DNA of 27,413 nt from Acidimicrobiales bacterium (GTDB taxonomy: Bacteria; Actinomycetota; Acidimicrobiia; Acidimicrobiales; Poriferisodaliceae): assembly GCA_020631315.1 (NCBI GenBank), contig JAHDHM010000004.1, forward strand, positions 4,005-31,417, in the 5' to 3' direction. Below are positions 12,025 through 16,094 of the stretch, one piece after another (positions within the stretch are counted from its first letter, which is position 1; each line of letters begins with the position of its first letter). The notes beneath the pieces are model-generated. The model saw only the letters and a program-made list of their open reading frames with translations. It did not search any database and was not told the DNA's origin. The position numbers and the translations under genes are program-made.

Positions 12025-12831
12025 ATGCCCGAGCTGCCCGAGGTCGAGACCGTCCGCCGGACATTGGAGCCTCACGTCGTCGGTCGTTCGTTCAGCGACG
12101 CCTGGGCTCATCCGAGCGCCAAGTTCGCACCGGCGGTCGAGGCGGTCGGCCCGATGGTCGAGGGAGCTCGGCGCCGTGGCAAGTACCTGCTGTTCGATCT
12201 CGATGACGGGCGGGAGTTGGTGGTGCATCTCGGCATGACGGGCCAGCTGACCTGGCACGGCGCGCCGCCCGACGACGATCCCCATGTCCGGGCCTGGTGG
12301 CGGTGCGCCGACGGAGCGACGCTGCGCTTCCGCGACGTCCGACGTTTCGGCCGACTGTCCGTCGTCGACGCTGGGGAGTACGCGGGTCTGCCGACGCTGC
12401 ACCACCTCGGTCCTGAACCCTTCGACGCCGAGCTGACGGACGAGGTGTTCTGGCGGTCGCTGAACTCGTCGTCGCGGCATCTCAAGACACAGCTGCTCAG
12501 TCAGCGTCCGATCGCGGGAGTCGGCAACATCTACGCCGACGAGGCCTGTTGGATCGCACGCGTCGCCCCGGCGGACCGTCGCATCAGCCGTGCTCGGGCA
12601 GGGGCGCTGTTGGCGGCCCTGCGCGACGTGCTCGGAACAGCGATCGAGCACGGCGGCACGACGCTGCGCGACTACCGGACGGGTGAGGGTGAACTCGGCG
12701 GTCACCAGCATCACCTGTGGTGCTACGGCCGTGGCGGCGAACCTTGTGCTCGATGCGGTGTGCCGCTGTCGAGTCGGGTCCTCGATGCCCGCACCACCAC
12801 GTGGTGCAAGGAGTGTCAGCCTCGCCGGTGA
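12025..12831 (+). CDS. mutM: formamidopyrimidine-DNA glycosylase (Fpg/MutM)
   Basis: Removes 8-oxoguanine and formamidopyrimidines from DNA and cuts the abasic site (base excision repair). Residues PELPEVETVRR give the catalytic Pro2 and Glu3; K53 lies in GARRRGKYLLF. The helix-two-turn-helix part has GVGNIYADEA, and the zinc finger has C241-x2-C244 and C261-x2-C264 with the YGRGGEPC and TTWC surroundings. Length 268, normal for the family. The PELPEVE N-terminus and this finger point to Fpg rather than Nei. The gene faces the nei-type gene, so two oxidised-base glycosylases lie tail to tail. Confidence 0.95.
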   Translation: MPELPEVETVRRTLEPHVVGRSFSDAWAHPSAKFAPAVEAVGPMVEGARRRGKYLLFDLDDGRELVVHLGMTGQLTWHGAPPDDDPHVRAWWRCADGATLRFRDVRRFGRLSVVDAGEYAGLPTLHHLGPEPFDAELTDEVFWRSLNSSSRHLKTQLLSQRPIAGVGNIYADEACWIARVAPADRRISRARAGALLAALRDVLGTAIEHGGTTLRDYRTGEGELGGHQHHLWCYGRGGEPCARCGVPLSSRVLDARTTTWCKECQPRR

Positions 12832-12860: not shown

Positions 12861-13655
12861 TCAGTCCGGCTGGCAGGTCGGACACCACCAGATCGACCGG
12901 TTGGCCACCGAGCCGATGACGATCGTGTCGGTGCAGCGGCGGCAGGGTCTGCCGTCGCGTTTGTAGGCGTACAGCGCGTCGGCTCGGCGGAGCCGCCCCG
13001 GGGTGACGAAGCCGGCGTCCTCACCTGTGACGGTCACGATCCGATTGAGCCGGACCCCGATGCGGAGCAGTTCGACGGTCAGGTCCCAGATGGCCTGGAG
13101 GGTCTCCCGATCGACGTCCTTGGCAGGGCGAGCCGGGTGGACGCCGAGCAGCAGCAGGATCTCGGCTCGATAGACGTTGCCGATACCGGCGATGACCTGC
13201 TGATCGAGCAGCAGTGCACCGATGGCCTTGCGCGAGCGGCTTGCCCGCTCGATGAACCGCTCGGGTTCGGCACTCGGCCGAAGTGGGTCCGGGCCGAGCG
13301 AATCGATGATCTCGTGGACCTCCATCGGATCGACGAGTCGGCATGTCTGCGGGCCGCTCAGGTGCCAGGCACGCTCAGGGCCTTCGAGCCGCAGGCGAAC
13401 CGCACCGGGTCGATGGACTTCTGCGGCCGTTCGCCTGAACTTCCCGATGAGACCGAGGTGGACGTAGAGCACGTCGTCGCCGAAGTCGAGGAAGAGGTGC
13501 TTACCGGCTGCGTCGGTGGACACGAGCTCGCGTCCGTCGAGCTGCGCGGCCCCTGTGTCGAAACGCCCTTGAGGAGAGGTGGCGAGCACCCGATGTCCGG
13601 ACAGGTCGCGTCCGAGATCGCGCGCGAGCCGGTGGATCGTGTGGCCTTCGGGCAT
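12861..13655 (-). CDS. nei: Nei-type DNA glycosylase/AP lyase (endonuclease VIII, mycobacterial Nei1-like)
   Basis: A 264-residue base-excision glycosylase for oxidised pyrimidines and ring-opened bases. It starts PEGHTIHRLAR, the N-terminus typical of Nei1-type proteins (catalytic Pro2, Glu3); K52 lies in DAAGKHLFLDF. The H2TH segment has IGALLLDQQVIAGIGNVYRAE. The C-terminal zinc finger has PCRRC and WWCPTC. ATG at 13653-13655, 19 nt after the whiB-like stop on the same strand, so it is very likely transcribed with it. No promoter of its own was seen. Pairing a repair glycosylase with a redox-sensitive WhiB suggests oxidative-stress control. Confidence 0.92.
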   Translation of the reverse strand: MPEGHTIHRLARDLGRDLSGHRVLATSPQGRFDTGAAQLDGRELVSTDAAGKHLFLDFGDDVLYVHLGLIGKFRRTAAEVHRPGAVRLRLEGPERAWHLSGPQTCRLVDPMEVHEIIDSLGPDPLRPSAEPERFIERASRSRKAIGALLLDQQVIAGIGNVYRAEILLLLGVHPARPAKDVDRETLQAIWDLTVELLRIGVRLNRIVTVTGEDAGFVTPGRLRRADALYAYKRDGRPCRRCTDTIVIGSVANRSIWWCPTCQPD

Positions 13656-13674: not shown

Positions 13675-14055
13675 TCAGCCGGCCTCGGCAGCCATCGCTC
13701 GGCGCGCTTCGAGCACCGACCGGCGACCGGTCGACCGAGGCATGTAGCCGGCGCGGGTGCGGTCTTCTTCGGACTCGCCTCCCCAGAAGCCGTGCTCGCG
13801 GTTCAGGCGTGCGTAGTCACGGCATTCGAGGACCACCGGGCACGCCTGGCAGAACATCGCAGCGATGGCTTCACGCTTCTCGCGCTGGTTCTGGGTCTCG
13901 CGGTAGGAGTCGAAGAACCACTGCCGGCGCCCCTTGCAGACCGCCTGGGACACCCACGTTCGTTCGCCGAGCATGACCAGCTCGGTGAGATCCGGCGTGG
14001 TCTCGACCTGGCCGGTCGTCGTAGTGGTGTGCAGATCCGACTCCACGAGTGCCAT
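13675..14055 (-). CDS. WhiB-family Fe-S transcriptional regulator
   Basis: A 126-residue WhiB-like protein. The four cluster ligands are C40, C69, C72 and C78 (AVCKG, then MFCQACPVVLEC), in the usual C-Xn-C-X2-C-X5-C order. The G(V/I)WGG turn appears as GFWGG (89-93), followed by a basic tail (RSTGRRSVLEARR) for DNA contact. WhiB proteins bind a 4Fe-4S cluster sensitive to O2 and NO and usually work with the main sigma factor. I cannot assign it to one numbered WhiB subfamily. Start: ATG at 14053-14055, with no Shine-Dalgarno and a good promoter 7 nt upstream. nei follows in the same operon. Confidence 0.94.
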   Translation of the reverse strand: MALVESDLHTTTTTGQVETTPDLTELVMLGERTWVSQAVCKGRRQWFFDSYRETQNQREKREAIAAMFCQACPVVLECRDYARLNREHGFWGGESEEDRTRAGYMPRSTGRRSVLEARRAMAAEAG

Positions 14056-14062
14056 GTACTCG

Positions 14063-14092
14063 ACTGTACAAAGGCATTTAGCACTAAGTCAA
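14063..14092 (-). promoter_or_regulatory. promoter of the whiB-nei operon
   Basis: On the minus strand: TTGACT (14087-14092), an 18-nt AT-richer spacer, TACAGT (14063-14068), then 7 nt to the ATG. It is the best complete promoter in the window and predicts a leaderless transcript. Confidence 0.7.
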
Positions 14093-14116
14093 GAGAAAGC
14101 GCACAGTGTGAAAACG

Positions 14117-14156
14117 GCCGTCGGCGGGCGCGGGTGAACACAGCGGGGCCGACGGC
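14117..14156. other. 9-bp inverted repeat, upstream of whiB
   Basis: GCCGTCGGC (14117-14125) and GCCGACGGC (14148-14156) are perfect complements with a 22-nt loop. It lies between the whiB promoter and the larger stem at 14159-14228. Confidence 0.55.
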
Positions 14157-14158
14157 AA

Positions 14159-14228
14159 GAGCCCGGCCAGCGGCAGGCATTCGGCCTGCAGTCAGCTCGA
14201 CCTGTGGCCCGTCCGCCCGGCCGGGCTC
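14159..14228 (-). terminator. nested stem structure after the B12 regulator gene
   Basis: GAGCCCGGCC (14159-14168) pairs perfectly with GGCCGGGCTC (14219-14228). Inside lies a second perfect hairpin, GCAGGC (14173-14178) with GCCTGC (14184-14189) and a 5-nt loop. The structure begins 5 nt after the stop of the regulator gene, so termination is the simplest role. It is symmetric on both strands and larger than a usual terminator. Confidence 0.5.
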
Positions 14229-14233
14229 GGGAC

Positions 14234-15082
14234 TCAGGACGCGGTCGAGCGGGCGCGACTCGCGATGCGCTCGTCCAGCCAGTCGAGCAGGCCGAGCGCG
14301 TCGGCGGCCCATGCCGCTTCACCTTGTGGCACCTGCTCGGCGGTGAGGCCGGAGCCACCACAGATGACCGGGATCTGGGGCACCGCGTCGCGGAGATCGG
14401 AGAGCAGCTCGGGCAGCACCAGCGGAGCGCCGGGGGCCGAGCAGCTGACCACGATCGCCACGCAGTCGTCGTGGGCGAGGGCGGCCTGGCTGAACGAATC
14501 CGACGGGGAGTTCGCTCCCAGGGAGAGTGCCTGGAACCCGGCGCCCCGGACGAGGTCAGCGAGGAACTGTGACGGCAGATGATGTTGATCGCCTGCCGGG
14601 GCACCGATCACGACGGTGCCGCGCTTGCGTCCTCGCCGAGTCATTCGCGGTGACAGGCGAGCGAGGAGCCGCGTGACCGTCGCCGAGGCGAGGTGCTCGT
14701 CGGCGACCGTCAGTTCGCCTGCGGCCCAACGCTCGCCGATCTCGCGCATCGACGGTGCGAGCACGTCGAGGTAGAGCGACTGGGGGTCGTGCCCGCTGGT
14801 CAGCGCGTCTTCGAGGAGCTTCCACGCCCCCGACTCGTCCGCGACGACGAGTCGGCTGATCAGCCGACCCTGCACGACCTCGGTGGGGGTCACCGTGCCG
14901 GTCGGCTCGCTCGCCGCGCCCTCCTTGCGGAATCGTTCGAGTGCTGCCGTGGACACCTGCCATCCGCTGCCGACCTTGTGCGCGTCGAGACGCCCTGTGC
15001 GCACGTAGCGGTAGGCCGTCATGTAGTGGACGCCGAGCTCGTCGGCGACCGCGTGCAGCGTGAGGTGGTCGGATTCGGTCAT
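14234..15082 (-). CDS. CarH-like cobalamin-binding one-component regulator
   Basis: A 282-residue regulator. Residues 7-52 are an excisionase/MerR-type helix-turn-helix (LHAVADELGVHYMTAYRYVRTGRL, split at the turn), with a GSGWQVS wing. Residues about 70-148 are a helical cap with W119-x9-E129-H130, exactly the Wx9EH motif of CarH-type photoreceptors that covers the upper face of adenosylcobalamin. Residues about 155-275 form a Rossmann-like B12 domain with D165-Q-H167 (the lower-ligand DxH; the following G of DxHxxG is Pro170). By analogy it would bind DNA in the dark with AdoCbl and let go in light. The His after the Trp that makes the bis-His adduct in Thermus CarH is Ala here. ATG at 15080-15082 with weak AGGG. 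Divergent from a P1 peptidase. Confidence 0.85.
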   Translation of the reverse strand: MTESDHLTLHAVADELGVHYMTAYRYVRTGRLDAHKVGSGWQVSTAALERFRKEGAASEPTGTVTPTEVVQGRLISRLVVADESGAWKLLEDALTSGHDPQSLYLDVLAPSMREIGERWAAGELTVADEHLASATVTRLLARLSPRMTRRGRKRGTVVIGAPAGDQHHLPSQFLADLVRGAGFQALSLGANSPSDSFSQAALAHDDCVAIVVSCSAPGAPLVLPELLSDLRDAVPQIPVICGGSGLTAEQVPQGEAAWAADALGLLDWLDERIASRARSTAS

Positions 15083-15090
15083 GTGTCCCT

Positions 15091-15121
15091 GTCGACGACT
15101 CCGTCAACGGTAAACGTCGAC
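15091..15121. promoter_or_regulatory. nested dyad, candidate operator of the B12 regulator
   Basis: Outer arms GTCGACG (15091-15097) and CGTCGAC (15115-15121); inner arms CCGT (15101-15104) and ACGG (15107-15110). The two centres differ by only half a base. A TACCGT -10-like box for the regulator (minus strand, 15107-15112) falls in the middle, so a bound protein would block it. Autoregulation is inferred. Confidence 0.5.
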
Positions 15122-15176
15122 ATCGGTCAGAGGTGAACTCTCGACGGCGGTTCTCGGGGCGCAGGTGACGGTGGAA

Positions 15177-15182
15177 TAGGTT
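15177..15182 (+). promoter_or_regulatory. -10 box (TAGGTT) of the P1 peptidase gene
   Basis: TAnnnT placed 6 nt before the ATG, no Shine-Dalgarno. Predicts leaderless transcription from the divergent region. Confidence 0.5.
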
Positions 15183-15188
15183 CGACAC

Positions 15189-16094
15189 ATGGCACTGGGA
15201 CTCGACGACGTGCTCGTCGGATGTTGGACCGACACGTCCGCGAGTACCGGAGTGACGGTGGTCCTGCCGCCACTGGGGACCCTCGGCGCGATGGCGGTGC
15301 GAGGCGGTGCACCCGGTACCCGAGAGGCGGCGGCTCTGGGTCCTGCGGGTTCAGGAGTCGAGTGCCACGGTGTCGCGCTCTGTGGCTCGTCGGTGTTCGG
15401 TCTCGCTGCCGTCGACGGTGTCGTCGAGTGGTGCCGTGAGCACGGGCGAGGTCTTCGACTCGCCGGAACCCACGTCCCGGTGGTCGCCGGGATGGTGGTC
15501 TTCGACCTGAAGGGCTCCGACGACGAACCGATCGAACGGGCCATGCCGACTGCTGCGTCGGGTCGTGCGGCGTGCGAGCTCGCCGCCGCATCCGAGCCCG
15601 AGTCGGGGCGAGTCGGCGTCGGCACCGGATGCACGGCCGCGAAGATCGGTGGCCGCCATCACTCGGTTCCAGGTGGTCAGGGATCTGCCGTGGTTCGCCA
15701 GGGCGAGGTCGTCGTCGGCGCGTTGATGGCGGTGAACCCGGTGGGTGAGGTCATCGATGCCGATGGTTCCGTCCTGGCAGGCACCACGGCGCCGGAGGGG
15801 TCACCTCGCTTTCCGGCCGTGCCGATGTCGGAGCTGTCGCTGTGGGACGAGGAACGCGGCAACACCGTGATCGGGTGCGTGGTCACCAATGCTCGGCTCG
15901 ACAAGGCGCAGGCACACCGCTGCGCCGATCTCGCGCACGGCGGCATCGTCCGTTCCATCGAGCCGGCGCACACCTCGATGGACGGCGATGCGATCACGCT
16001 CCTGGCCACCGGCCAGATCGAGGCGTCGATCGATCAGATCGCGGCGATGGCAGTCGAGGCCGTCGCCGAGGCGGTTCGCAACGCAGTGCGCTGA
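15189..16094 (+). CDS. P1 (S58, DmpA/NylC-like) family peptidase
   Basis: A 301-residue self-processing N-terminal-nucleophile aminopeptidase/amidase of the DmpA-BapA-NylC family, cytoplasmic (no signal peptide). Visible marks: VGCWTDTSASTGVTVVL near the start, RGGAPGTRE, the GSSVFGLAAVDGV stretch, and GNTVIGCVVTNARLDK. Autocleavage between N225 and T226 would expose T226 as the nucleophile. The C-terminal IEPAHTSMDGDAI segment matches the family (P-x-HT-x-x-DGD). The physiological substrate of such proteins is mostly unknown; known members act on small peptides, beta-peptides or nylon oligomers. It is divergent from the B12 regulator and shares its control region, which makes it a possible target. 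The stop lies one nt from the stop of the convergent GH26-like gene. Confidence 0.9.
   Translation: MALGLDDVLVGCWTDTSASTGVTVVLPPLGTLGAMAVRGGAPGTREAAALGPAGSGVECHGVALCGSSVFGLAAVDGVVEWCREHGRGLRLAGTHVPVVAGMVVFDLKGSDDEPIERAMPTAASGRAACELAAASEPESGRVGVGTGCTAAKIGGRHHSVPGGQGSAVVRQGEVVVGALMAVNPVGEVIDADGSVLAGTTAPEGSPRFPAVPMSELSLWDEERGNTVIGCVVTNARLDKAQAHRCADLAHGGIVRSIEPAHTSMDGDAITLLATGQIEASIDQIAAMAVEAVAEAVRNAVR

What the first reader, a model, noticed from the sequence alone, without database searches (positions are those of the whole stretch)
14234..15188. CarH-like B12 light-sensor candidate with its own nested operator dyad, paired with a P1 peptidase
The regulator has the exact Wx9EH cap motif and a DxH B12 site, the hallmarks of adenosylcobalamin photoreceptors, but an excisionase-type HTH, a Pro in the DxHxxG motif and Ala instead of the His that captures cobalt after light. 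The divergent region holds a dyad (outer 7-bp, inner 4-bp arms, same centre) covering the regulator -10 box. CarH usually controls carotenoid genes; here the neighbour is a self-cleaving P1 peptidase, an unexpected possible target.
Basis: partly seen in the sequence, partly recalled or inferred. Interest (0 to 1): 0.7.

Follow-up and report, generated by a model that had tools for sequence, protein, structure and literature searches.

The report
Likely B12 light-sensing photoprotection repressor
A bacterial gene switch that very likely reads light with vitamin B12 sits here beside a WhiB regulator and a DNA-repair gene, and a conserved 14-letter DNA site found near its relatives suggests that it controls protection against light damage rather than the peptidase next door.

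Summary
The reported protein features are real: a 282-aa regulator with an excisionase-type HTH_17, a B12 cap with exact Wx9EH and a DxHxxP B12 site; its best fold matches are B12 photoreceptors. The interpretation around it needs replacing. Ala and Pro at those positions are common in a large family. The GTCGAC dyad is weak. The P1 peptidase is a bystander: in three relatives with the closest peptidase orthologues it lies directly beside the Nei DNA glycosylase, with no regulator between. Recurrent partners are WhiB and, in some lineages, Nei. A palindrome, ATTTAGYRCTAAAT, recurs near these regulators, tracks their presence (40 of 73 genomes with, 18 of 225 without), lies between genes in 84 of 85 cases and is absent where the recognition helix differs. 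In the window its only copy overlaps the WhiB-Nei promoter; in relatives it lies at carotenoid, ECF-sigma, tetrapyrrole and WhiB genes. Best reading: an AdoCbl-dependent photoreceptor-repressor of a photoprotection and DNA-repair regulon, with an operator unlike CarH's and, here, without the cobalt-capturing His. B12 binding, light response and operator binding are inferred, not shown.

The parts
14234..15082 (-). HTH_17 + B12 four-helix cap + B12 Rossmann regulator (REG), 282 aa (P0001)
14726..14728 (-). Trp119 of Wx9EH; the next codon (14723-14725) is Ala120 in place of CarH His132
14693..14698 (-). Glu129-His130 of Wx9EH
14573..14590 (-). DQHHLP: D165-x-H167 (predicted lower cobalt ligand)-x-x-P170
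14076..14089 (.). Proposed operator ATTTAGCACTAAGT (consensus ATTTAGYRCTAAAT); the only copy in the window
14063..14092 (-). WhiB promoter TTGACT-18-TACAGT overlapped by the operator; the WhiB ATG follows 7 nt after the -10 (possibly leaderless)
   Evidence: spacing read
13675..14055 (-). WhiB-family regulator (P0003), proposed target
12861..13655 (-). Nei/Fpg-like DNA glycosylase (P0124), 19 nt after WhiB, proposed co-transcribed target
15189..16094 (+). P1 peptidase (S58, P0002), judged a bystander
15090..15122 (.).

Best explanation
REG belongs to a large family of probable adenosylcobalamin-dependent photoreceptor-repressors in Acidimicrobiales-type actinobacteria that use an excisionase-type HTH_17 instead of CarH's MerR domain. 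In the dark, AdoCbl is held between the four-helix cap (W119, E129, H130) and the Rossmann domain (H167 below the cobalt). The oligomer then binds the palindrome ATTTAGYRCTAAAT and blocks RNA polymerase. In the window this is the WhiB-Nei promoter, where the palindrome overlaps the -35 end and the spacer. Light cleaves the Co-C bond, the complex lets go, and WhiB and the Nei glycosylase are made. In relatives the same site controls carotenoid genes, ECF sigma genes, WhiB and tetrapyrrole genes, so the regulon as a whole is photoprotection and repair of oxidised DNA. Because residue 120 is Ala, release cannot use CarH's bis-His state; a CtMerR-like route without His capture is the likeliest. 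Shown here by computation: domain make-up, key residues, predicted fold, motif, its link to REG, synteny. Inferred: AdoCbl binding, light response, that REG itself binds the motif, repression.
Confidence: 0.6

Rival explanations
1. REG senses the level of AdoCbl rather than light: a B12-dependent repressor giving feedback on tetrapyrrole/B12 and Fe-S related genes.
For: At five sites in four genomes the motif lies near a 509-513 aa gene; the one copy scanned (L197) is a fused uroporphyrinogen-III methylase/synthase. Ferrochelatase is within 2 kb of REG in all 16 fetched loci of one family. The Pro at 170 and the missing His132 weaken a CarH-type switch.
Against: Carotenoid genes, CMAS/DUF1365/FAD-oxidase clusters, ECF sigma, Nei and ImuB neighbours fit light damage better than B12 supply. 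Wx9EH, which caps the photolabile adenosyl group, is kept.
Confidence: 0.18
2. Another protein binds ATTTAGYRCTAAAT (for example the co-encoded WhiB), and REG is only one of its targets.
For: The motif often lies directly before P0003-type WhiB genes, also away from REG (8 such sites). The ImuB-linked REG loci have no site. 18 of 225 genomes without REG have the 12-mer, though 12 of these 18 also have the control pattern.
Against: Sites lie beside REG without WhiB: in eight of nine ECF-sigma loci between REG and the sigma gene (in the ninth, L010, only upstream of the sigma gene), and in several CMAS or carotenoid loci. No site is found in loci whose REG has a changed recognition helix.
Confidence: 0.15
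3. One reading: REG acts through the GTCGAC dyad on itself and on the divergent P1 peptidase.
For: The dyad is present and the two genes are divergent with a 106-bp gap.
Against: S58 is near REG in 1 of 99 loci. The closest S58 orthologues sit beside Nei without REG. GTCGAC occurs 70 times in the window.
Confidence: 0.04
4. A CarA-like relict: REG binds DNA but no longer binds or responds to B12.
For: DxHxxP instead of ExHxxG, no His132. One family member (P0010) has lost the B12-ligand His.
Against: The cap and the ligand His are kept in 95 of 105 loci, and CarA is described as lacking Wx9EH (PMC8156234), which REG has.
Confidence: 0.1

Closest known systems
CarH / class I LitR (Thermus, Myxococcus, Bacillus, Streptomyces)
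   Same: HTH + four-helix cap with Wx9EH + B12 Rossmann domain; cobalt-ligand His; in some relatives carotenoid genes with the motif in the REG locus
   Different: HTH_17 instead of MerR; DxHxxP instead of ExHxxG; Ala instead of His132 (His in 15 of 105 rows, window included); a 14-bp palindrome as candidate operator instead of tandem 11-bp direct repeats; NCBIfam CarH model 69 of the 400 bits required
CtMerR (Chloracidobacterium, PDB 8JBS/8JBT)
   Different: Published as MerR-like; 26% identity over the aligned part; operator and targets not named in the sections read
Photocobilins SasPcob and AbDPcob (8J2W, 8J2Y)
   Same: Best fold matches; light-responsive B12 domain without His132; AbDPcob is from an Acidimicrobiaceae bacterium
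   Different: They carry a bilin domain (AbDPcob also a diguanylate cyclase); no HTH is described in the sections read
Class II LitR (PplR / PmlR, Pseudomonas)
   Same: A light regulon with SDR, FAD oxidoreductase and a furan fatty-acid synthase, similar in kind to the CMAS/FAD-oxidase/SDR clusters seen in some relatives
   Different: No complete B12 domain; light enters through a LOV protein (PMC9758184 passages)

Membership tests
CarH (AdoCbl photoreceptor repressor) | Wx9EH cap motif | tested here: met
CarH (AdoCbl photoreceptor repressor) | ExHx2Gx41SxV/Tx22-27GG B12 motif (as given in PMC8156234) | tested here: not met
   DQHHLP...SCS...GG read: the His and GG are kept, Glu is Asp, the Gly is Pro (alignment)
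CarH (AdoCbl photoreceptor repressor) | MerR-type DNA-binding domain | tested here: not met
   HTH_17 and TIGR01764 hit; no MerR model listed at E<=0.001
CarH (AdoCbl photoreceptor repressor) | NCBIfam NF052513 CarH equivalog cut-off | tested here: not met
   69 bits, cut-off 400
CarH (AdoCbl photoreceptor repressor) | His132 for the bis-His light state | tested here: not met
   Ala120; other residues stand there in CtMerR and photocobilins
CarH (AdoCbl photoreceptor repressor) | Operator of tandem 11-bp direct repeats nAnnTnnACAn | not tested
   not scanned; the shared motif found is a palindrome
CarH (AdoCbl photoreceptor repressor) | AdoCbl binding, dark oligomer, light release | not testable with these tools
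   needs purified protein
Light-responsive cobalamin domain (SignatureFinder signature) | GxxW, EH, GxxH, GxxxP in order | tested here: met
   GERW, EH, GDQH, GANSP; window true, 114 of 121 protein rows, 68 of 105 loci by one pattern with limited spacing
Light-responsive cobalamin domain (SignatureFinder signature) | Fold of the B12 photoreceptor domain | tested here: met
P1 peptidase S58 (neighbour) | Peptidase_S58 Pfam match above cut-off | tested here: met
   110.7 bits, cut-off 23.9

The most novel reading that the evidence does not exclude
A distinct, widespread branch of B12 photoreceptors has replaced the MerR domain by HTH_17, reads a 14-bp palindrome, and links light directly to a WhiB regulator, tetrapyrrole synthesis, carotenoids, ECF sigma factors and base-excision repair. 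Within one syntenic orthologue group the cobalt-capturing His is present in some members and not in others, giving natural variants with which to test whether bis-His capture is needed for light release.
Probability: 0.5. Interest if true: 0.75.

Novelty: new variant of a known kind. Interest (0 to 1): 0.62.

Why it matters
If true, it extends B12 light sensing from carotenoid control to DNA repair, Fe-S WhiB regulators and tetrapyrrole flux in a mostly uncultured group, supplies a concrete operator that predicts the regulon genome by genome, and provides orthologues with and without His at the CarH His132 position in the same gene neighbourhood. That would make the open question of how light releases such proteins without bis-His capture directly testable.

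Tried and rejected
Peptidase as partner: rejected after synteny. GTCGAC dyad as operator: rejected. CarH-style 11-bp direct repeats (nAnnTnnACAn): looked at by eye in the WhiB promoter only, not scanned. Strict CarH membership: rejected on tested features. A WhiB or other reader of the motif: kept as a rival.

Led nowhere: the own-genome search (no genome held); a plasmid search with P0001 gave 78 records, all under 60% identity and none covering 80% of the query, chiefly Thermus and Streptomyces; PHROGs gave only weak excisionase/DNA-binding matches for REG. Literature: in searches no listed title or abstract start deals with an HTH_17-B12 regulator tied to WhiB or Nei. Searches found nothing; one search found 55 papers and one search (motif strings) 76, with 20 listed each, so unlisted ones were not seen. 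Only open-licence PMC text was searched. Papers: PMC11796333 sections 8, 9, 11, 12 and passages; PMC10442372, PMC8156234 and PMC9758184 passages; all others listing only.

Weak spots: 9 of 99 loci got no regulator gene from my gene caller and were left out of the neighbour clusters, but they are in the tblastn counts. The gene caller missed some WhiB genes, so cluster counts of WhiB are low and one search is the better count; 'between genes' rests on the same caller. Queries for WhiB, Nei and S58 came from the window, those for ferrochelatase, glutaredoxin, ImuB and ECF sigma from members of the loci counted. L006/L007 hold near-identical regulators, and L020/L112 overlap. Four rows (L124, L126-L128) were left out of the tree. 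Of the genes queued in the failed only L211 was scanned later.

Full report

The residue oddities are ordinary. A protein search gave 1918 matches at E<=1e-3 among 7997 scored candidates, of which 120 were listed. In the 121 proteins looked at (query included) all have Wx9EH and none has His after the Trp (A 85, E 21, S 9, V 3, Q 2, K 1); a simple pattern finds Pro at the end of the loop in 105, another residue in 3 and no loop in 13. In 105 genomic loci (window included) the Trp is kept in 97, Glu in 96, the second His in 99, the cobalt-ligand His in 105, and all four in 95; the position after Trp is Ala 56, His 15, Glu 14 and others; Gly180 is Pro 77, Val 10, Ala 10, Gly 4, Ser 3, Thr 1. Published photoreceptors without His132 exist: CtMerR has Arg, SasPcob Gln, AbDPcob Tyr (PMC11796333 section 11). 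The signature given there (GxxW, EH, GxxH, GxxxP) is met by the window protein, by 114 of 121 protein rows and by 68 of 105 loci. Against this, TtCarH H132A was reported to stay mostly tetrameric after light, contrary to an earlier report that the same paper cites (PMC10442372 passages).

The peptidase is a bystander. The neighbour is an S58/P1 peptidase. A homologue lies within 3 kb of the regulator in 1 of 99 loci, the window itself (some loci are shorter than that on one side). 46 of 73 regulator genomes have an S58 gene at E<=1e-10. The three with the closest copies (60-63%) were fetched: each shows MshC, PDDEXK nuclease, Fpg, Nei and S58 in the order they have in the window, with Nei and S58 divergent and about 40-80 bp apart; no WhiB or regulator match at E<=1e-8 and no motif was found in those 19-kb stretches. 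So in the window a WhiB-regulator pair lies between two old neighbours, which is most simply read as an insertion. Those three genomes have more distant regulators elsewhere (36-37%).

Recurrent partners. Counting with window queries by tblastn in 99 loci, WhiB lies within 3 kb in 21 and Nei in 11, the window included. The window's MshC is closest to that of genome G304 (68%) among 298 genomes. In the family of G304, 16 of 19 genomes have the regulator at E<=1e-30; all 16 loci have glutaredoxin, WhiB and ferrochelatase matches within about 2.2 kb, and 14 of 16 have Nei. Outside that setting Nei is often elsewhere: of 32 genomes with a close Nei (E<=1e-60), 10 have it beside the regulator, counted by eye. 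Other lineages place the regulator beside ImuB-like polymerase genes, ECF sigma genes (with RskA-type anti-sigma genes in the two loci tested), or CMAS/DUF1365/FAD-oxidase/SDR clusters. A tree of 105 regulators puts the window with P0004-P0007 in its own clade (99), apart from the other Nei-linked ones; neighbour labels are clustered (20 changes against 54.7 in shuffles), and the WhiB-Nei-ferrochelatase label needs five changes (single-test supports, many open forks). Recurrence of the same partners in separate clades suggests a functional tie.

The operator. The only sigma-70-like promoter found in 13950-15260 is TTGACT-18-TACAGT before WhiB. It overlaps TTAGCACTAA (14078-14087), which occurs once in the window and in none of 100 shuffles; the 12-mer TTTAGYRCTAAA with up to two mismatches occurs once too, and in 5 of 100 shuffles. 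Across 105 loci there are 64 TTAGNNCTAA sites in 52 loci (0-4 in five Markov controls), with a central pyrimidine-purine step in 63 of 64. The flanks extend the consensus to ATTTAGYRCTAAAT. Over 125 stretches, 20 of which were chosen because they hold the motif, 84 of 85 TTAGYRCTAA sites are between called genes although 87% of bases are called coding. In 298 genomes of the order, the 12-mer occurs in 40 of 73 with the regulator (E<=1e-30) and 18 of 225 without (Fisher 3e-16); the tool's reversed control occurs in 10 of 73 and 36 of 225; 12 of the 18 also hold the control pattern. In the G304 family it is in 15 of 16 with and 1 of 3 without. Loci whose recognition helix reads HYMT hold a site in 50 of 88 cases, HYQT/HYTT in 0 of 15, which points to the regulator as the reader of the site. 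Several loci carry two sites 16-19 bp apart, as for a multimer. Against it: 33 of 73 regulator genomes lack the exact 12-mer, 29 of 50 listed sites in regulator genomes lie more than 5 kb from a regulator, the ImuB-linked loci hold no site, and the genomes are related, so the p-values are optimistic.

Targets. Sites precede P0003-type WhiB genes near and far from the regulator: 29 of 63 close WhiB matches (E<=1e-17) lie within 2.5 kb of a regulator or 700 bp of a listed site, against 0 of 52 weaker WhiB matches that I entered. In L086 one site lies between a run of polyprenyl synthetase, FAD desaturase-like and phytoene-synthase genes and a lycopene-cyclase gene, and another just upstream of the regulator. 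In L085 one precedes polyprenyl synthetase and a desaturase-like gene. Sites also lie near a fused uroporphyrinogen-III methylase/synthase (five sites in four genomes next to genes of 509-513 aa; one protein scanned), fasciclin, P450-ABC1, sigma-70, glycosyltransferase, DUF4397 and FAD-oxidase genes.

How it likely works. Dark AdoCbl-bound protein sits on the palindrome over the WhiB-Nei promoter; light cleaves the Co-C bond and lifts repression, giving WhiB plus repair of oxidised bases. The case for 'light' is inference from cap residues, fold and the nature of targets, including carotenoid genes as with CarH and clusters like the light regulon of Pseudomonas class II LitR (PMC9758184 passages). 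Sensing of B12 level is the main rival, because tetrapyrrole genes are among the candidates.

Verdict.

Noticed in passing
L158, L159, L162, L163, L077, L087, L093, L094: Syntenic orthologues (Grx-WhiB-REG-Nei-ferrochelatase) have His at the CarH His132 position, while others in the same family do not: natural variants of the light-capture residue.
   Followed up: partly
L001, L003, L005, L009, L012, L019, L071, L075, L089, L090: A REG branch sits next to an ImuB-like polymerase gene, often with a 181-309 aa gene (the one copy scanned has no Pfam match; ImuA-like by position only) and in several a NUDIX gene, but has no copy of the palindrome.
   Followed up: partly
L065, L077, L092, L096, L158, L159: Tandem palindromes 16-19 bp apart, suggesting cooperative binding of a multimer.
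   Followed up: no
L108:7732-10653, L119:4077-7001: A cytochrome P450-ABC1 kinase fusion of about 973 aa with the palindrome 18-44 bp upstream.
   Followed up: no
L196-L200: The palindrome lies near a 509-513 aa gene (the copy scanned, in L197, is a fused uroporphyrinogen-III methylase/synthase), with a P0003-type WhiB match within 700 bp of the same sites.
   Followed up: partly
L126-L128, L130-L141: Related regulators with recognition helix HY[QT]TAYRWVR and no palindrome in their loci; their operator is unknown.
   Followed up: no
window 12025-12831 (+): A second, convergent Fpg-type glycosylase beside the Nei gene; the Fpg/Nei pair is kept beside S58 in three relatives.
   Followed up: yes
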